Below, piece after piece: positions 960-10,463 of a DNA stretch of 10,463 nt. Where the stretch lies: contig LSSL01002085.1 in the NCBI GenBank assembly GCA_001953115.1, forward strand, positions 1-10,463, in the 5' to 3' direction. The notes beneath the pieces are model-generated. The model was not told where the DNA came from. It did not search any database and saw nothing but the letters and a program-made list of their open reading frames with translations. A program made the position numbers and the translations under genes. Position 1 is the stretch's first letter. The number at the start of each line of letters is the position of its first letter. The DNA comes from Smittium mucronatum. Taxonomy: Eukaryota > Kickxellomycota > Harpellomycetes > Harpellales > Legeriomycetaceae.

Positions 960-1781
960 TTATTTTCAATTGAATAATTTGAAATTTCGCCAAACTTTTG
1001 CGCAACTCAATATATATAATATATATTATGTGAAGTTTACTTTAAAGTTAATAATAAGTACTAAAAACCAATTTAAAATTTTTTACCCAACACTCCTTTG
1101 ACACCCTAACAGCTCCATGTCTCGAGGGCATTAATTCAAGTGGGCTTGGGAAATCACTTAAATTCTAAGCTAAAGTGTTCTGGGAACCAGGATTCTAATA
1201 GGAAATTCAGTTGCTTATCGTAAAAATTTGATATTGGCAGTATCATCTCTTAGTATATTATATCTATATTTAGCCCCTAATACATCCAAGGCACTTACCA
1301 ACTATCCTCAAAAGGAATTTGTTGAAAATAAAATGTTGATTTTTTTAAATCTGAGCAGATTTGTGTGGATATGAAGCGGTAGATCATCTCGTTTCGCTGT
1401 CTATCTTTTCAAAAGGAATTTAATAATATGTTTCGATAGTTTCAGGTACATCGATTTTGCAGAATGGATGGTTTTTTTTAATCAAATTCATCTAAAAATA
1501 ATAAATTTTGAATATAACTTAGTCTTTTATGGCAATTAACTAATATTTTACTATTCTGGAAACATTAAAGTGTTATTCTCTTTATTGATAAATTAGCTAA
1601 AAATACAAACAACTAGATATAGCTTTATTGATATTTTCCATGTTGCGAATTTTAGGTAACTGTACCATCTTTTCGCAAAGTAAAAACAATTAAGAAATAT
1701 ACTGAGTAGGTAGGACTTAATATGAATATTTCGGCAGTATAATATTACTAAATAGTCGTAAAATACCAAATTAACTTCAAA
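960..1781. other. Non-coding stretch with faint minus-strand coding traces
   Basis: No gene can be defined. Two faint minus-strand traces exist. One is an ATG-started run at 1491 of 23 codons, followed in the same frame by 13 more after a stop; it is rich in Lys, Glu and Thr. The other is a 39-codon open run around 1166-1050 that overlaps a locally G+C-richer patch (about 1090-1160). Neither resembles a family I know. This region follows the end of the recombinase relic and could be the 3' part of that element, but no boundary or terminal repeat is visible. Confidence 0.4.
1009..1027. repeat. AT-alternating palindrome
   Basis: Nine-base arms aatatatat and atatatatt flank a single central base, giving an almost perfect palindrome that could extrude as a hairpin. 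In DNA this A+T-rich it may be simple microsatellite growth. Confidence 0.6.
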
Positions 1782-2875
1782 TTATCTGACATTTGATGAA
1801 TTGATATTAAGTGAATCCAGAGGGATTATATTTTGAGTCAAATTCATGCCAGAAGTGTATGGCAAGCAATACAATGAATTAAAAACTTTGTAACTTCACC
1901 AATATAATTGAGCCACTATTCATTCTTAGGGGAGCTTTAAATTTGCGACTCTATTCGCGCCTATTGTTTTGATCTTTTGTATTGGGATTTTTTCAATGAT
2001 TTTTATGTTTTTGAAGATGTTATTTATTTGCCTGATTATATTTTTAAGAGACGGAAATCTTCCGGAATCCTTTTTTTACCTAAAAATTTTGTTCACAGAT
2101 ATAATGAGGTCATTATTTCGTAGATTAATCCATTTATTCGTGTCCAACATTGAATTTTAAACAGAATATGGTCGTTCAAAGCAGAGTATCTTGTATGGGT
2201 AGCTGCATATCTCATACGTTTTTATTATTCGGCGGCACATAGTTTATTTTTTGGGATCATAACCACAAGTATCAAGGTGCCGTATATTATCACTTTATTT
2301 GCATCACTTATGTGATAATTATCATTCGCCCTCATGAAAAAACATATAGCCAAAGTAAAGTATGCCCTGCTTGTTGGAAATACTATTTCTGAATCCTTTT
2401 TCTGTCCTATGCTCTCAAAGTACTCCACTACTAGAGATATATCGATTTCTGGTCTAACAATTCATTATACTGGTTTTATTCAAAGATTTAATTAATATCT
2501 GAATATATTACAATTCACTTAATCATTTCAGGTCTGAAGCCAGTAGAGATATTTCTAATTATTATAGTTTCAATGTACTTATACTAATCTTGTCCCTTGA
2601 ATGCAACTATGCAAGTTATCAATTAAGCATTGTATTATTATACCTGAATCTGGAAAATTCACTTTATTCCGCTATTTAAACTTTTGCTGAGAATAATAAA
2701 ATTTTGACCTTTAATTGATAAATCCCCAGCTTGACAGGATGAGGTTAGCTGCAATTTCTGATAAGACCTAGCTACAGAGTAAGATCTGCTAACATTCTAG
2801 ACCACTAAATTCTGAATCTTGTTCTTGTATAGCGTATACTTTTCGTTTCTCAGATCTGGTACTACTTTTATCGAT
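1782..2875 (-). pseudogene. Decayed tyrosine recombinase (Crypton/YR-transposon type)
   Basis: Tyrosine recombinases cut and rejoin DNA through a covalent 3'-phosphotyrosine. Those of Cryptons and related YR elements excise and integrate the transposon. In one minus frame (about 2875-2225) I read an N-terminal core-binding segment containing FYYSQQKF (about 2701-2678), then the start of the catalytic domain with FFMRANDNYHISDA. Its Arg codon at 2330-2332 matches catalytic Arg I, and PKNK lies where the hairpin Lys is expected. A frameshift near 2225 moves the reading to a second frame, which runs to a stop at 1782-1784. That frame gives PIQKIKTIGA at the HxxR box (1968-1979; His and Arg have become Gln and Lys), QLYW at the His/Trp box (1899-1910), and VFNSLYC with the nucleophilic Tyr codon at 1869-1871. 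At least eight in-frame stops and one frameshift mean it is dead. Length (about 360 codons) suits a single-domain YR. No 5' start codon is evident. Family call: motif order seen directly; the Crypton-like label is inferred. Confidence 0.78.
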
Positions 2876-2963: not shown

Positions 2964-5455
2964 TTAATCCTTCTCTACGTATTTTTTGTATAAACTTTGG
3001 AACTAGGTCCCAAGGAGTGTAGCAAATGAATTTATACATTCTCTCATAGAGTGCTTTAGAACTTCCTGACTGATTTCCTTCTGAGCTGGATACCTTAAGT
3101 AGTAAATGTTGGCATTATAGTTTGCGACTGATGCAAAAAGATCTAACTCGTGTATTTCAAATAATAAATTCGGATTTCTGAGTAAGCTCCATTAGATTAA
3201 ACGCTCTGTTTGTTCTGCCAGCCAATTTAGGGCGTTCTCAGAATATAATTCAGACGGTTTTATGTCATCTACGGTATCATATTTTTTTATGAAATTCCTT
3301 CAGATCTTTTCCGCAATGCTCAAAAAAATTGAGGAAGTTTTTCGCAAAACTTTCCCACTTACGACAGGGAGGTGGTGCTGTCCGACTATATCAGAAAAAA
3401 TCTCCCAAAAACTTCTGGTAATTTCATGGCAAAAAAGACCTTAATTAGCTCCATTACATTTATATGATGCTTTTTTCTACTATTTTCTATACTATAGAAT
3501 AATTCCTGTTCCATATCACGATTACCCAGACCATATGGCATACATCTGTAAGCATCTCGATCTTTTTTTCTTCGGTAGAAGTCATAGACCATTCCATTTC
3601 CTTAAATTATTCTTCCAAAACGTTATGTTTTGGATTAAATTTTTCGAGAGCTGGAATTTTGATTTAAATTACTTTTTTGCCTTCCAGAATCGTTTCTTCA
3701 ATTCTAGGAGCCAATTCAGCGTCAATATTCCCGGTAAGAGTGCTATTTATATAGCCAGAGCTTTTTCGATTAAACTGGTAAACTCCCTTAAAGACATCTT
3801 TTCCGCAGAAAAAGGCTTTGCTGCTTCGATTATGAGACCTCTTATCTTTGTTCACAGGACTTTTAATGAAATATTCCCTCTTTATATTTTCATACATAAG
3901 TTTTTTTAGGCAGCGATGGAATTATATAAAACTTAAAATTACTTATCAGATATCATAAATTAGTCACACCCCTTGTTATTCGTGAGTTTTAATCCACGCG
4001 GAATTCCTTATTTCTCAAAATTATTAGATCTTCCAAATAAGCTGAGAATCTGATATTATTCACCTTGCTTATGAAATTTCTGGCATCAATACCCCTTTAA
4101 AGTTGTGAGGAATTAATGAGGGGCCAAATTTTAGTTCCCATAACTGACAATTTCTTCTATTCCAGCTAAATCTTAAATTTCTGCATTTTCCCCTTGAAAC
4201 TATATTTATAATACTTCTTTTGGTTCTAGAAAAGTAATGTGGACATTACTTCTCACCAATTTGTAGGTTTTTTAGGTGGATTATTTTTTGAAATTTCACT
4301 CCTCCAGAGTTTTTTTAAGCCTCCTTAAATCCTGTAAAGACTTAGATTTTTTTAATCTTTGTAATGCAGAAAATATTGCTTTATAAAAATTGTAAGCAAC
4401 TCTCTAGGTCATCATTAGCCTTCTTTGGTAATATATAAATGGCATTCCTCGATAATTTTTCGCAAGCCTTCCTGTTAATTTTTCGTTCATGGCTCATAGG
4501 GAACATGGTAAATGAGGGTTTTCCTGAATATTTTGGATAATATCTCGTCTACTCTTTCTACTTTGTATTCATAAATTACAAGAGGCAAATGTCTGATTTT
4601 TAATCCTTGAAAGATATCTCAAAACCTTTCTCGAAGATGTTAAGAACTAATCGATTGTTATTGAGTCTTTCCCTTACTTTCCGGAACACTGCAAAGCGTT
4701 CACAAACTAAAGAGGACTGCAGAGATACTATCGGCTTCCCCTATAACTCCGTCAATGAGCTTACTGAACCCCTGAACTGAAAGAAACGATAGTATTTCTA
4801 GTAGTGGCTTCGGTTATTGGCGCAGGTAAAGAGATCTGAGCTTTGTGAGCTGCAATTTCGTCGTTTTGATAGCTTTCAATAAAAGTATTTTTAGCCTTCA
4901 ACCTTTTTACTGGATCGCTGGCTACAATTTGAGTCTAGAAAAGCTTTTTTTACCTTCATAGGCTTATTTTTGGACTTAATTAACTGCTCTAGTTTCCTAA
5001 ATAGAGCCATCACTTTGTGGAAACTTTCTAGCCTTGCTTGAATAGAGGTAGATGAAACTTTGATGAAAATAAATCTTAGCATAACTAATAGTTCCGATAC
5101 CAGGTATTTATAACTCAGACCTGGATCTTCCTAGCGCTTCGTTTGCATGAAATAGTCTATCATCTGATACAGCTATCGAGAGCTGTCTGTATATCGTATA
5201 GAGTCTATTCTGTTTATATTACTGCACTTAAAAGTGCTTCATTTAGATGAGCGGATTTTAATTCATCTAGCTATTCCTGGAAATAAAGATTATCATCCCA
5301 TTTCTCTCATCTTAAGTTATTAGAAGCCTATATAAATCCTTTTTCAAAAATAATATGAGGTTTTCTAACTCAGCATACATGCTAAGGACTGTTACTGGCG
5401 TGTTTAAAGTGATATGCTGATCCTTTTTAGCACCTTCTTCCATTTTAATTTCCAT
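2964..5455 (-). pseudogene. Long decayed coding region, unidentified, upstream of the recombinase relic
   Basis: A series of protein-like minus-strand segments follow one another in order but in changing frames. The first is an ATG at 5453-5455 opening a 47-codon run (MEIKMEEGAKKDQ...), followed by an acidic helical run at about 5306-5222 (LDELKSAHLNEALLSAV). Next comes a Lys/Arg-rich run at 5179-4891, then open runs at 4901-4761, 4740-4600 (VRERLNNNRLVLNIFEKG), 4618-4490 (VERVDEILSKIFRK) and 4490-4296 (64 codons, one stop; LQRLKKSKSLQDLRRLKK). The rest are 4245-4072 (SWNRRNCQLWELKFGPS), 4096-3992, 3851-3750 (KPFSAEKMSLREFTSLIEKA), 3897-3487 and 3390-3280 (PCRKWESFAKNFLNFFEHC). The last, about 3300-2964, has 110 codons with two stops (ELDLFASVANYNANIYYLRY). 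If single, the ancestor had about 800 residues, mostly charged and helical. I see no RT, integrase, helicase or DDE motif and do not recognise it. Same strand and direct succession suggest it belonged to the recombinase element, but it could be an independent gene. The antisense plus-strand frames are Phe-rich shadows. Confidence 0.5.
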
Positions 5456-5645
5456 CTATAAAGTGTTAGTCTTTGATTTGAGGTTTTTGATAGCGTTTAT
5501 CATATAAAAAATAAAAGTATTAGATATTATCATTATATTAGAGCTATTTTTTTTTTTTTGGTGGATTATCCTTGCAAAAAAAGAGAATGCATTTACAAAA
5601 ACACGCACCATGGAGAGTATCCATAAAATTTTCTTTAGTTATTTG
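5456..5645. other. Spacer with T13 tract between coding relic and inverted-repeat element
   Basis: No gene seen. A run of 13 T at 5547-5559 runs directly into ggtggatt, so the junction reads tttggtggatt (5557-5567). The same 11 bases occur, inverted, at the far end of the inverted-repeat element (8427-8437). This could be an alternative left end of that element, or a second copy of its terminal sequence. The T-run could also be a poly(A) tail of a minus-strand retroposed copy, but nothing else supports that. Confidence 0.4.
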
Positions 5646-5978
5646 TAATTTTCGGTGATTCAATAATAAAAAAGATAAAAATTAGGGAAAATTACAAAAA
5701 TGATCAGGTTTTCAGAAATATTTGCAAAAATGTTCAGATTTTTGAAAATATTTGCAAAAGTGATCAAATTATCAAAAAATTCATATTTATAGCAAAAAAA
5801 TTAACCAAGATTTTTTTAGGAAAATATAATTGGCCCAAATAAACTCCCAAAAAAGAATAGAATTTTTTATAATAAATACTTTCATAATCTGGGATTTCTC
5901 TATTAGGATAGACTAGTTTCAATTTTAATTTTTGACAATATATTTTGACACTTCATATAGGAGGTAATAGCAATTTAT
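5646..5978 (+). repeat. Left arm of the long inverted repeat
   Basis: Running inwards it reads gtaatt/ggtgattca, a tail of A-rich sequence, three 30-bp tandem units, gatttttttaggaaaa, the uninterrupted atataattg site, caaataaactccc, then ctgggattt and the ctagtttcaattttaa block. It ends near caatttata. All of these have inverted counterparts at 8441-7733. Compared with the right arm it lacks the 415-bp insertion and has about a dozen extra bases near its outer end. Confidence 0.7.
5694..5783 (+). repeat. Three 30-bp tandem units in the left arm
   Basis: Units start at 5694, 5724 and 5754, each exactly 30 bases. The best-conserved part is gcaaaaatgatcag, followed by a T/A-rich half ending aaatattt. 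The first two units are closest and the third is more diverged. Subterminal tandem repeats of this kind are often transposase-binding sites in long-TIR elements; that role is inference here. Confidence 0.75.
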
Positions 5979-7732
5979 AAGGTTTAAATACTAAAAAAGA
6001 CCTACAATTAATCATTTAATTGTAGCTTTTTTATTTTCAAGACACTTTAAAAAAACAAAAGGATTTTTTCAGAATAATCCAAGCCGTTTTTCCAAATGAT
6101 TGTTTTTATCTAATTAAATAAGCGAATTTGAATTTTTGTCGTATATTATACATTCATATTAGCCAAGTGGAAGTGAGAGTTGAATATTTTTGGTTTTAAT
6201 CCATTTTTTCTGAAGTAGCTCTGAATAATTGCGCTTGAGGATATTTCGGGATCAAAAAAATCTAAATCGGAATTAATAAACCAAATTATAGATATTATTA
6301 AGCACATTTATTTAAAATCAGATGAAAAAGTTTCGAATTATTTTAGAAAATACTTCATAGATTAGTTTTTGTTAAACTAGTGTCATGCACAAAGATATTT
6401 ATAATCAATACTGATGATAATTTTTCAGACCTATCTGTAAAATGGGCGATTAAAATTATAATTTATATTTCTACATTAAAATAGTAATGTATAATATCTT
6501 TAAGAGGCTCATATTAATGCGAAATTGTAGCTAAATGTATATTACATCAATTGATAATTTAATTATTATTGATGGGTTCAACTTTACAAAGAACAATATA
6601 GTTTATATTAGGCAGTTAGTTTTTCATTTAACAAGCCATTGTATTCCCAAAAAAAAATCATATTAAAGACTTCATGATCTCCAAGAATAATTTTGATAAC
6701 TTTTTAGAGTTTATAATGAAAAATGACTACTATTTACCATAATAAATTTAAAAAATTAATAATAGAACCGACTTGTGTGCTTGTCTTGGGACACCAAACC
6801 ATTTATAACAAAGATGGGCTATAAAAAAGCAAGAGCAATCTTCAAATTAATTATTTATAAAAAAGAATAAGTTTGTTAAAATTGCAATCGAAAAGTCTTA
6901 AAATCTTCAAAGGAAAGCATATCTATAATTAGTGTCAAAAAAAATGCTTTTATTGTTCTTTATAACATATTTGATTTGATATTTTGTACTGTTTATCTTT
7001 TGAGCCCTCAACATTATAATATTAAAACATAATTAAAATTTAGCTCTTATAATCATATATTGAAAATATTGAAAAGAATTTTATTCAATTTTAGTTTATT
7101 TATTATTTATACTCTACTATTCAATTTATTAATTTTATCCTTATAACATATCATTATATCATAGACTCATCCAGAAAAAAAATTTACTCATAAAACGTTA
7201 TATAATTATAGCATGTTAAATATTATTTTAATCTAACTTAAAAATTATTCTAGAATTACATAGCAAAATATTCTGAAATAAAATCAAATATTAAGGGCAA
7301 AATTCATGGAATTGAGATGAAAGCGATGCTTAATCTATTCCAAATGCCTAAATATTCAATGGTATTATCAAATAAAACCAAAAATCTTTATCTTTTAGGA
7401 GAAAATTGATTCAATCTTTTAGAACTTTGGGCAAATAAAATTAGAACTAATTTGGCTTTCTATAAGATATATAAGCCAGATATCAGAGAGGTCATCAATA
7501 ACATATAAACCCCTTAAGAGTTAAATGGATCTATAATTTTATTGAAGTATAGCTTCATCTTCATCTCTCAATGTAAAAACTTTTAGTTTTGATACGTTTC
7601 TTGTATATTCAGATACTGTTCTTATCTAAAAAATCTGTTAAAAAAATCGAATTTCTATCCAAAATATTTTTTGGATCCTACTAAATTCTATTATTTATGG
7701 TATATTCAATGCTCAATTTTATTCGACATATT
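5979..7732. other. Interior of the inverted-repeat element, no recognisable gene
   Basis: This is very A+T-rich and full of stops in all frames. The longest protein-like trace is a plus-strand run of 46 codons at 6225-6362. It has a Lys/Ile-rich centre containing SKKSKSELINQII and KSDEKVSNYF, ends at a TAG (6363-6365) and has no start codon. A transposase once lying here would be expected for an autonomous element, but I cannot name a family from what remains. No RNA gene is visible apart from a hairpin at the left side. Confidence 0.5.
5993..6032. repeat. Strong hairpin just inside the left arm
   Basis: A perfect 10-base stem, ctacaattaa (6002-6011) with ttaattgtag (6016-6025), closes a 4-base loop (tcat). 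The stem continues outward through aaaaaag (5993-5999) and ctttttt (6026-6032), with a two-base bulge on the left side. It lies right at the inner edge of the left arm and has no copy inside the right arm. Its shape resembles a bacterial intrinsic terminator, but the context is eukaryotic repeat DNA, so I list it only as a palindrome. Confidence 0.75.
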
Positions 7733-7875
7733 TAAATTGATATTAACCCTACATGAATTGTCAAAACATATTTTCAAAAAATAAAATTGAAACTAGCCTA
7801 TCCTAATTGACAAATCCCAGATTAATGATTTTATGGATTATAAAAAATAACTATTTTTTGTGAGTTTATTTGAGT

Positions 7876-8308
7876 CAATTTTATGGAAAACGAAAATTTC
7901 ACCACACCTTTACAAGAAACACATTTATAATCTTATCTATTCTCACTTTATTACAATAATTTGCTATTTTTATAGCCCTGCCCAATTACTATGATGAAAA
8001 AATTACTAATTTTGCACAAAATATTTATTTCATTTTAATAAGTGAATAAATTTTAGCTTATCCGCTAAATTTGTATTATACTGTTGTCATGGTATAATTT
8101 GCAATAGTTTAATGTAAAGAAGTTAAATAAAAAAAATTTTGACCAAGGAGATTATTAGAATTTAAATGTGCTAAATTTTTAGATTTATTTTAGCAATAAT
8201 TGGGTAAAATGTAAATTCGATCTAATAAGAGTAATTTTGTGCAAATTTACTAAATTTTGCATTGTTATTTGTAAAACTGTGGAAAGATGTATTTCGTCCC
8301 AATTTTAT
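7876..8308. mobile_element. 415-bp MITE-like insertion with 9-bp target-site duplication
   Basis: The 9-mer caattttat occurs at 7876-7884 and again at 8300-8308, flanking 415 bp (7885-8299). Those 415 bp are missing from the left inverted-repeat arm, where the equivalent site appears once (minus-sense ataaaattg versus atataattg in the left arm, near 5827-5835). The insert's ends are imperfect inverted repeats. The left end, ggaaaacgaaaatttcacca, and the reverse complement of the right end, ggacgaaatacatctttcca, both continue into a ccaca..tttacaa.aaca pattern, about 40 bases in all. It has no coding capacity. A 9-bp duplication with short size and TIRs fits a non-autonomous DNA transposon; 8-9 bp duplications are known for hAT- and Merlin-type and 9-11 bp for Mutator-type families, so the family is left open. 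Confidence 0.7.
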
Positions 8309-8313
8309 TTTTC

Positions 8314-8403
8314 TAAAAAAATATTCGATAATTTTATAAATTACAACTATTTTAAAAATCTGATCATTTTTGAAAACATTCCTGAAAACCTGATCATTTT
8401 TGC
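8314..8403 (-). repeat. Three 30-bp tandem units in the right arm
   Basis: On the minus strand the units begin at 8403, 8373 and 8343 with the same 30-base spacing as in the left arm. The first two keep caaaaatgatcag exactly. The third is degraded and recognisable mainly by its attatc core and its position. Confidence 0.7.
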
Positions 8404-8441
8404 AATTTCCCCTAAAAATTAATATGAATCCACCAAATTAC

Positions 8442-8871
8442 GTATAATTGATACTCATTGGAAAATATAAAAGACTCAATTCAAAATTTTCCTATTTCTT
8501 TGAATACAGATTTACGCTAAGGAAATATCTCCTGAAGATTTATTCAGTTTTATTTTCCATAGATTTTATGATTCATCTTCTACTGTTGGATTTTAAACAA
8601 ATTACTTTTTTTCTCCTTTAGAATTTCGTGACGGTTTTTAAAACCTTTTAATATTTTAAATTCAATTGATTTATCTATCTTTCAGTTACTTTCGCCCAAA
8701 CTTCAAGCTCTGGTCTTTACGGGCGGCTTAATGAGGAAAAAACCCCTAGTTGTAAATATAGACTCTTAGGAAATTCACACTCTCAATCATGCTAGTTTTT
8801 AACAAGACATATTTTATGCCGATTATGTTTTAGAATCATTCCATTGCGCAAGGATTATCCGAATTGGCAAT
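8442..8871. other. Stretch between inverted-repeat element and LINE relic, no clear gene
   Basis: Nothing is clearly coding. Because the LINE relic is on the minus strand, this stretch would be its 3' part (the end of the ORF and the 3' UTR). A locally G+C-richer patch at about 8690-8745 has short protein-like minus-strand runs, but I cannot match them to a LINE C-terminal domain. No poly(A) tail or target-site duplication marking the LINE's 3' end could be placed. Confidence 0.4.
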
Positions 8872-10463
8872 CAGTAAGACAATTTTTCGATCTCGATTTC
8901 GATCTTTATGACTTGATTTTGTTCAAACCAAAGGCCTTGCTTCAGCAAAAACCAATTGGAAAAAAAACCAAATTGGTGGATTTTATTTGAGGCCTTTTGG
9001 TTTTTTAATATCAGATCGGATGATCGAGGGTCTACTTCAATCATTAAAAATAATTTGGGCACATTTACAGTCATAAAAAACTGCTCTACCAAAAATTAAT
9101 TTTATTTAATTCTATTAGCATTTTGGTCCCGAATTCAGCCATTATTGCCTTATCATCAGCAAAAAGCAGTCCAAGCATCCTAGAGGGGGGCTCAGGGACA
9201 TAGTCACTCTGAATACCTTTGAAAACTTTAGTTAATATAAAAATCAAAGAGTATTGGTGAGGATGAGCAGACTTTTCGCAGCTCCCACAGGTAGTCAGTT
9301 GGTTTGAAAAAATCATCTCTAACTCCAACAGCTATTTTCAGGGATCTATAGGGACCCAGAGAGAATTGAGTAACTTTCTTAAAATCAAAATTTCATTCAA
9401 TCTACAGCTGTTTGGTGTGGAGCACTCTATAGGATTCGCCTAAGTCGATATAGCTAATATATACTTATTTTTATGTTTTATTTGATGGGAAACTTCGTAT
9501 ATGGTGTTTGATTGAGTGGCTTTCTCTTTAAAATTTCTAAATACATCTTGTTTTTTGACTAATATTTCGCATTTCTTATCGATCATACCAATTTTTTAGC
9601 CATTATTTATTATAATAGCTTCAAAATGTTCGAAATTAGTAAAATTCACCTATAGTTATCGGGGTCCTTCATATTTCCCTTTCTTGGAACTGGCACCCAA
9701 TATTAGTTCAGTATTAGTCGGATTTCCCCCAGATTCTTACATTAAAAAGATAATTTTGAAAATAAATTTTTCCATTTTCGACTCAGATATTTTATCTGTT
9801 ACCGCCAGTTTCCATACCTCGCTGGGTATTCCAATAGAACCAGGAGCATTTTTATTAGGTGTATCAGATAACTTCGTGCTAATATCGGATCATTTGATAT
9901 TAGTGTCGCACTCTGGAAAGTATTCGCAGTCGGTAATTAGCAGTGATTCCCACTTAGTTGCACTGCGGCTATTCCCAGCGAAATCATTGGCTAATTCGCC
10001 GAAATGATTATTCCAAATTTCAAGCTTTTTGTTTTTTTCAGTTATTATATTTTTATTTTAATCATACACCGGGCCGTCCGAAATGCTCCTAATTGTGTTC
10101 CCAGTGCATGATTTTATGGTTCTCAATTAGTTTCTAGAGTCACTAGAAATAATTTTTTCATATAGTAATTTCATCTTTTTATCTTAGTAAATTTTGCGAT
10201 ATGATTTTATTGCATTAATTGAGCTCGATTTGGCAATTAAGTAATCGATTTTGTCGATTCTTCCAAGCTGATAATCTCTAAATTTATTCCTAAGATTTTT
10301 GATAGTAGAAATCGTTTTTTTTGGACAGAGGTTTTGACCATACCTCAGTAGTTGCTGTAGAAGCTTGATGACGCTTTGATTTTGTCCATAAAGTTTCAAT
10401 AAGACCTTCAGAAAGCTGATTTAGACCCATACCAGCATCAATTAATGAGCTAAATCTGTTACT
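8872..10463 (-). pseudogene. Decayed non-LTR (LINE) reverse transcriptase, open at the right edge
   Basis: LINE pol proteins copy their RNA onto nicked target DNA. Reading the minus strand from 10463, the first frame stays open to 10290. A second runs from 10399 to about 9657 and contains IWNNHF (10001-10018) and NKNAPGSIGIPSEVWK (9809-9856), the motif before the palm, with the usual Asp of PGxDGI replaced by Ile. DPDNYR (9649-9666) follows in another frame, then QDVFRNF (about 9539-9553). Next is motif A, YIDLGESYRVLH (9417-9452); its first Asp is kept, but the second Asp expected after the Tyr is deleted. SPILFDFYIN (9231-9260) corresponds to the QGCPxSPxLF region, and LGLLFADDKAIMAE has the catalytic FADD at 9152-9163. 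MTVN.PK (about 9056-9074) is the post-palm motif. At least six frame changes and many stops show it is dead. No endonuclease or zinc finger is in view; the 5' part lies beyond the window. The RT is certain; the LINE clade is undetermined. Confidence 0.88.
8892..9028. repeat. Imperfect inverted repeat inside the LINE relic
   Basis: The arms are 8892-8936 and 8991-9028. The inner ends match best: aaaccaaaggcc (8925-8936) against ggccttttggttt (8991-9003). The outer ends also pair, with ctcgatttcgatc against the reverse complement of gatcggatgatcgag. The 54-base loop itself contains two ccaatt/aattgg palindromes. It overlaps the region just after the RT palm motifs, where the protein reading becomes unconvincing. 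Confidence 0.55.

What the first reader, a model, noticed from the sequence alone, without database searches (positions are those of the whole stretch)
1782..2875. Tyrosine recombinase relic in a TE graveyard: possible Crypton-like element
The minus strand keeps, in the right order and spacing, a core-binding segment (FYYSQQKF), the Arg I box (MRANDNYHI, Arg at 2330-2332), a decayed HxxR box (QKIK at 1968-1979), a His/Trp box (QLYW) and the Tyr box (VFNSLYC, Tyr at 1869-1871). YR transposons are much less common than LINEs or DDE elements and are thinly sampled in small parasitic eukaryotes. The motif order is seen directly; membership of Crypton rather than DIRS/Ngaro is inferred from the lack of a neighbouring RT of that type.
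Basis: partly seen in the sequence, partly recalled or inferred. Interest (0 to 1): 0.75.

Follow-up and report, generated by a model that had tools for sequence, protein, structure and literature searches.

The report
Decayed DIRS1-like retrotransposon in gut fungus
The tyrosine-recombinase relic is real, but it is the tail end of a worn-out DIRS1-type retrotransposon, probably in a fungus living in insect guts, and not a Crypton DNA transposon; this is an ordinary find for such fungi.

Summary
In detail: all five motifs lie at the stated places, and the relic belongs to a repeated family with 149 matching places in the host genome (147 outside the window; best E 3e-34). In relatives the R, K, R, W and Tyr positions are conserved and the protein is predicted to fold like Cre. 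Relatives carry a gag-like ORF, reverse transcriptase (RVT_1), Dam-type methyltransferase and the recombinase, inside inverted terminal repeats with an internal complementary region: DIRS1 anatomy at 4.2-4.4 kb. Decayed counterparts of these parts lie on the window's minus strand from 8448 to about 1497. A 2.7 kb inserted element with terminal inverted repeats and a 9-bp duplication splits the left terminus. Protein relatives come from Smittium, Mortierellaceae, Mucor, Rhizopus and Phycomyces. DIRS1-like elements are already reported from early-diverging fungi, so this is a dead member of a known kind. One point is mildly interesting: the His of the HxxR box is absent in 43 of 43 readable aligned relatives (Pro in 35) while the rest of the active site is kept; variability of this box was noted in 2011.

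The parts
8417..8448 (-). outermost part of the left terminus of the DIRS1-like element, cut off from the rest by the inserted TIR element
   Evidence: 84% over 32 bp to the left end of relative L053 (E 0.001) and 90% over 30 bp to the left ICR of L053 and L054 (E 3e-05); weak on its own against the window's ICR (score 34, best of 200 shuffles 33)
5685..8412 (.). later insertion, 2728 bp, imperfect terminal inverted repeats beginning GGG(G)AAATT, flanked by 9-bp duplications TAAAAATTA at 5676-5684 and 8413-8421; Mutator-like by TSD length (recalled criterion, no call)
   Evidence: inverted arms 5682-5747 / 8350-8415, 89%; 80 of 95 columns identical; flanks read
5634..5684 (-). inner left ITR
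   Evidence: 80-81% to left ITRs of L053 and L054; 69.7% over 119 columns to the reverse complement of the window's own right ITR, score 89, best of 200 shuffles 59
4606..5518 (-). ORF1 (gag-like) relic, in pieces 5518-5354, 5094-4939 and 4737-4606
   Evidence: tblastn with ORFs of L053-L056, 31.6-38.9 bits, just above to above the 30.4 bits of the best of 200 shuffles
4016..4491 (-). reverse transcriptase relic, with AYLEDLIIL in place of AYLDDLIIV
   Evidence: matches the L054 ORF that scores RVT_1 4.9e-14; three linked pieces of 36.6, 31.2 and 25.8 bits, linked E 1e-11; the last (AYLED) is below the shuffle maximum on its own
3570..3905 (-). RT to RNase H connection relic
   Evidence: 58.9 bits to L053, 53.1 to L056, 51.2 to L054
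3042..3338 (-). RNase H end and start of the methyltransferase region (HELDLFAS)
   Evidence: 36.6 bits to L054, 33.5 to L053
2788..3030 (-). Dam-like methyltransferase relic (CYTPWDLVPKFIQKIRRE)
   Evidence: 56.6 bits to the L056 ORF, which scores PF05869 Dam 4e-08, above the curated cut-off
2612..2872 (-). tyrosine recombinase, core-binding domain relic (FYYSQQKF 2678-2701)
   Evidence: 64.7 bits to an L055 ORF over 2872-2243; the like-placed segment in P0016 scores Phage_int_SAM_4 1.6e-09
1791..2461 (-). tyrosine recombinase, catalytic domain relic: Arg I 2330-2332, QKIK 1968-1979, Trp box, Tyr 1869-1871; frameshift near 2225-2255, six in-frame stops
   Evidence: 87.8 + 37.0 bits to L054; 147 other matching places in the genome
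1715..1829 (-). internal complementary region (ICR), downstream of the YR
   Evidence: within one 458-460-column match, 67-68%, to L054 and L053; its reverse strand matches the right end of L053 (76.8%, 69 bp)
1497..1714 (-). right ITR and right end of the element
   Evidence: end of the same match; matched in inverse by the ICR and the left ITR of the window (scores 66 and 89, best of 200 shuffles 56 and 59)

Best explanation
The feature is the recombinase end of an old, inactive DIRS1-like retrotransposon lying on the minus strand from 8448 to about 1497, about 4.2 kb long once the later 2.7 kb insertion is left out of the count. In relatives the order is gag-like ORF, RT, RNase-H-like region, methyltransferase, YR, within inverted terminal repeats. 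From the published DIRS1 model (inferred here, not shown): the RNA is copied by the RT, the two ends pair with the internal complementary region to make a circle, and the YR inserts the circle at a matching trinucleotide through a Tyr-DNA intermediate, without target duplication. The window copy is dead: stops or frame changes in the RT, methyltransferase and YR relics, box II Arg changed to Lys, and a second transposon inserted into its left terminus. The host is most likely a Harpellales (Smittium-like) fungus.
Against: The window's YR pieces hit no Pfam integrase model. Phage_integrase reaches only E 0.009, below cut-off, in 1 (P0016) of 16 different YR relatives scanned. A profile of 13 relatives finds no PDB chain at E <= 10, and hhalign with three E. 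coli recombinases gives probability 0.5%, so the YR identity rests on core-binding domain, residues, spacing and fold. RNase H was not hit by an RNase H model. ORF1 pieces are only just above the shuffle maximum, and the window's own left-end to ICR pairing barely exceeds shuffles (34 against 33).
Confidence: 0.95

Rival explanations
1. Crypton: a DNA transposon that encodes only a YR (with or without a GCR1_C or other DNA-binding domain) and moves as an excised circle.
Against: RT and methyltransferase directly upstream in relatives and as relics in the window; ITR plus ICR; no GCR1_C or DUF3504 among the matches of 13 relatives at E <= 1.
Confidence: 0.02
2. Ngaro or PAT-like YR retrotransposon with split direct repeats.
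For: RT and YR in one element.
Against: Ends are inverted, not split direct, repeats in 4 of 4 elements; a Dam-type methyltransferase is present; Ngaro was reported as absent from early branching fungi (PMC3783388, passages seen).
Confidence: 0.02
3. Chance run of motif-like residues in AT-rich DNA.
For: No direct Pfam integrase hit of the window pieces.
Against: 147 other matching places in the genome, E down to 3e-34; 87.8 bits against at most 30.4 in 200 shuffles.
Confidence: 0.01

Closest known systems
DIRS1-like retrotransposons of Mucoromycotina (PblDIRS1, RoDIRS1, MciDIRS1; PMC3266345, passages seen)
   Same: gag, RT, RH, MT, YR; ITRs and two ICRs; length 4.2-4.4 kb
   Different: Host lineage (Harpellales-like). 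Those three elements themselves were not compared; annotated YR proteins of Phycomyces nitens, Rhizopus and Mucor mucedo are 31-42% identical to the family members L034 or P0019. Window copy decayed; exact terminal trinucleotides not settled.
DIRS of Kickxellomycotina (Coemansia reversa; PMC3783388, passages seen)
   Same: DIRS order, found there in all Mucoromycotina, Kickxellomycotina and Blastocladiomycota genomes analysed
   Different: No sequence of the Coemansia element was compared here
Crypton (PMC3212892, passages seen)
   Same: Encodes a YR
   Different: No RT, RH, MT or ICR; CryptonF carries GCR1_C, not found here
Cre recombinase (residue numbers from PMC4381057, passages seen)
   Different: Cre has His-289; the family has Pro, Leu or others there. 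Arg II to Tyr is 33 here; 32 by position in XerD, FimB and FimE

Membership tests
DIRS1-like retrotransposon | RT of the gag-pol type with YL/IDD box | tested here: met
   RVT_1 4.9e-13 (L056) and 4.9e-14 (L054), AYLDD in both; relic at 4491-4016 in the window with AYLED
DIRS1-like retrotransposon | RNase H | tested here: inconclusive
   Region lies between RT and MT in relatives and window; no Pfam RNase H match, only weak sub-cut-off DNA_pol_viral_C matches (E 0.011-0.12) in three ORFs
DIRS1-like retrotransposon | Dam-type methyltransferase domain | tested here: met
   PF05869 4e-08, 33.6 bits, cut-off 28.1, in L056; 0.007, below cut-off, in L054; relic 3030-2788
DIRS1-like retrotransposon | tyrosine recombinase | tested here: met
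   Core-binding domain in P0016, YR fold; in A2 (45 of the 70 proteins found) Arg I 44 of 45, Lys 44 of 44, Arg II 41 of 44, Trp 42 of 43, Tyr 42 of 45; His of HxxR 0 of 43
DIRS1-like retrotransposon | inverted terminal repeats and internal complementary region | tested here: met
   ITRs in 4 of 4 relatives, both ICR arms in 3 of 4 as listed; window: met in part
DIRS1-like retrotransposon | insertion without target-site duplication | not tested
   Empty sites were not looked for
Crypton | YR-only element without RT | tested here: not met
   RT and MT in the same element
Crypton | GCR1_C or DUF3504-type domain | tested here: not met
   Neither is among the 12 families matched at E <= 1 by 13 relatives
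Ngaro | split direct repeats | tested here: not met
   Inverted repeats at the ends of 4 of 4 relatives; the direct repeats listed are short, 25-36 nt, and do not form an end structure

The most novel reading that the evidence does not exclude
Early-diverging fungi carry a clade of DIRS1-type recombinases that works without the third pentad residue, the His of HxxR. The position is Pro (35), Leu (5), Val, Tyr or Ala (1 each) in 43 of 43 readable relatives of A2, and never His in the 21 readable of the 25 left-out proteins either, while Arg I, Lys, Arg II, Trp and Tyr stay nearly invariant. A conserved Lys one residue on (39 of 43), or a His/Gln three residues before the Trp (42 of 43), may take over its role. 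The published note that MciDIRS1 has LCPV at the HSTR site may then be a misplacement: LCPV occurs in 25 of 45 family members, in a segment upstream of box II, and the true box II reads P-K-A-R.
Probability: 0.45. Interest if true: 0.4.

Novelty: new member of a known kind. Interest (0 to 1): 0.2.

Why it matters
It corrects a classification: a YR relic without an obvious RT next to it need not be a Crypton, because a decayed RT and a later insertion can hide DIRS anatomy. It adds many DIRS1-like copies from a probable Harpellales genome; the papers I could look into name DIRS-type elements for Kickxellomycotina at large but describe none from Harpellales in the passages seen. The active site without the box II His, shared by Mucor-, Mortierella- and Smittium-type relatives, would be a natural test of how dispensable that His is: Cre H289A recombines with reduced efficiency, while Flp H305A cleaves but is blocked afterwards (PMC4381057, passages seen).

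Tried and rejected
Own-genome search with Phage_integrase (PF00589): 0 matches, while the control genomes rang in 14 of 14; the model is too remote here, which is not evidence against a YR. Pfam on the window pieces: only DUF6641 at E 0.1; nothing for the YR piece. PDB sequence search with a profile of 13 relatives: 0 at E <= 10. hhalign against XerD, FimB and FimE: probability 0.5%, alignment not meaningful; the spacing comparison was done by position. Crypton, Ngaro and chance rejected as above. Host naming by ribosomal RNA failed because the search did not complete; the host is inferred from best hits, from the window's GC of 29.2% and from genome size and GC published for S. culicis and S. 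mucronatum (71-102 Mb, 26-29% GC, PMC5954228, passages seen). The relatives here are not near-identical to S. culicis proteins, so the species is not claimed.

Literature: searches. Smittium + retrotransposon gave 2 papers; two of three of Harpellales, transposable elements, Smittium culicis gave 8. Passages looked at: the words dirs and transposon occur 0 times in the main text of PMC5954228, dirs 0 times in PMC12611240 and PMC8778642; PMC10386755 repeats the Kickxellomycotina statement of PMC3783388. The other papers in those lists were seen only as listings, except those cited elsewhere in this report as passages seen. DIRS + tyrosine recombinase + HxxR gave 0 papers. Supplementary files were not read.

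Full report
What was checked. They lie in two frames, one for the Arg box segment (2461-2225) and one for the C-terminal boxes (2249-1830), with six stops in the latter.

Is it more than chance. The relic protein finds 149 places at E <= 0.1 in the same genome (150 of 241 candidates scored, so a lower bound of matches); two of them are the window. Some places are two pieces of one element, and several pairs of contigs give equal scores, so the number of elements is smaller. The best others are C2013 (E 3.1e-34), C640 (1.3e-28) and C2813 (2.2e-27). In an alignment of the 28 matches that were given loci (L025-L052, two of them identical in protein), Arg I is R in 23 of 28, Arg II in 24 of 28, Trp in 23 of 25 readable, Tyr in 27 of 27 readable; the position of the HxxR His is P 20, L 5, T 3 and never H. 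So the Lys at Arg II in the window is decay, but the missing His is a family trait.

What element it is. Four relatives with surroundings (L053-L056) show the same order: gag-like ORF, RT (AYLDD in L054 and L056), a linker with DLFAS and PPWNLI-like motifs, and the YR. Pfam gives RVT_1 at 4.9e-13 (L056) and 4.9e-14 (L054) and DNA N-6-adenine-methyltransferase (Dam) at 4e-08 (L056), all above the curated cut-offs; a second L056 piece (RVT_1 0.019) and L054 (Dam 0.007) are below them. The repeat finder shows inverted terminal repeats in all four and, after the YR, a region complementary to the outer ends: for L053, 5148-5184 with 1157-1193, and 5178-5246 with 5408-5476. This is the lITR, lICR-rICR, rITR layout published for DIRS1-like elements (PMC3266345, passages seen). 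From end to end L053, L055 and L056 are about 4.32, 4.35 and 4.21 kb; three published Mucoromycotina elements are 4274-4402 bp.

The same element in the window. tblastn with the ORFs of L053-L056 places the relics collinearly on the minus strand: ORF1 5518-4606, RT 4491-4016, connection 3905-3570, RH end 3338-3042, methyltransferase 3030-2788, YR 2872-1791; blastn adds ICR and right ITR 1933-1497 and left ITR 5684-5634. Best scores per part are 37 to 88 bits, with further ORF1 pieces at 31.6 and 32.3; the best of 200 dinucleotide shuffles reached 30.4. The AYLED piece of the RT, 25.8 bits, is below that and counts only as linked to its neighbours; other pieces below 30.4 are not used. The outermost left end is at 8448-8417, beyond a 2728-bp insertion at 5685-8412 with imperfect terminal inverted repeats and 9-bp flanking duplications TAAAAATTA. 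Leaving insertion and one duplication out of the count, the element measures about 4.2 kb. Its inner left and right ITRs are 69.7% alike over 119 columns, against 78-83% over 176-191 columns in the four relatives; the stretches differ, but this agrees with an older copy.

Who carries it. The first protein search gave 14 proteins, from Smittium culicis, S. simulii, S. megazygosporum, Phycomyces nitens and two unnamed JGI proteins; the second, with 13 sequences, gave 60 (only the 7995 candidates sharing most words scored), adding Mucor, Rhizopus, Mortierellaceae and others, and some unnamed metagenome proteins; 70 different proteins in all. In a tree of 37 rows the genome's copies intermix with S. 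culicis proteins, and the window row sits in a 9-row group with L025-L027, L029, L033, L043, L050 and L051 (97/89) on a branch of 1.28, so its exact place is unsure. A Harpellales host is likely but not shown.

Active site. In A2 (45 of the 70 proteins; 33 from named fungi, 12 unnamed): Arg I R 44 of 45, Lys K 44 of 44, Arg II R 41 of 44, Trp W 42 of 43, Tyr Y 42 of 45; the HxxR His position is P 35, L 5, V 1, Y 1, A 1, two gaps, never H; the next residue is Lys in 39 of 43; three residues before the Trp there is H 31 or Q 11 of 43. In the 25 left-out proteins the position is P 15, L 3, E, F, Y 1 each and 4 gaps, again never H; P0069 and P0070 among them do not look like recombinases. Arg II to Trp is 23 residues, as for Cre Arg-292 and Trp-315; Arg II to Tyr is 33, against 32 in XerD, FimB and FimE. 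PMC3266345 reports that HSTR is found in only 13 of 28 DIRS1-like elements and gives LCPV for MciDIRS1; in the present family LCPV occurs in 25 of 45 and CPV in 36 of 45 rows, upstream of box II, so that assignment may be off by position. Cre H289A recombines with reduced efficiency; Flp H305A cleaves but is blocked afterwards; Tyr or Gln occupy the place in a small subset of recombinases (PMC4381057, passages seen). So such a site need not be dead, but whether the fungal enzymes are active is not shown.

Verdict. Observation confirmed, Crypton reading not supported. A dead DIRS1-like retrotransposon of a kind already described from early-diverging fungi, with one modest open question about its active site.

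Noticed in passing
window 5685-8412: Inserted 2728-bp element with imperfect TIRs starting GGG(G)AAATT and 9-bp duplications TAAAAATTA; coding content was hardly looked at (one 62-aa ORF scanned, no Pfam match at E <= 0.1). Its genome copies could not be counted because the search did not complete.
   Followed up: partly
window 9086-9331 (minus) and 10184-10420 (minus): Possible further retroelement relic: by eye an LLFADDKAIMA stretch resembling an RT ADD box (no Pfam match); a DUF4817 helix-turn-helix match at E 0.0023, below cut-off, at 10184-10420.
   Followed up: partly
G000:C145:18090-18713 and G000:C2000:66888-67511 (L036, L037): Two contigs carry the same family member, identical in protein; further pairs with equal scores (C145/C2000 twice more, C689/C2847, C1810/C2239, C1039/C2631, C1354/C1726) suggest unmerged haplotypes or duplications in the assembly.
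   Followed up: no
P0002, P0004 and P0005 (Smittium simulii): By eye, annotated Smittium genes that fuse recombinase fragments with other sequence (P0002 and P0004 start like the gag-like ORF1), probably gene models over broken elements.
   Followed up: no
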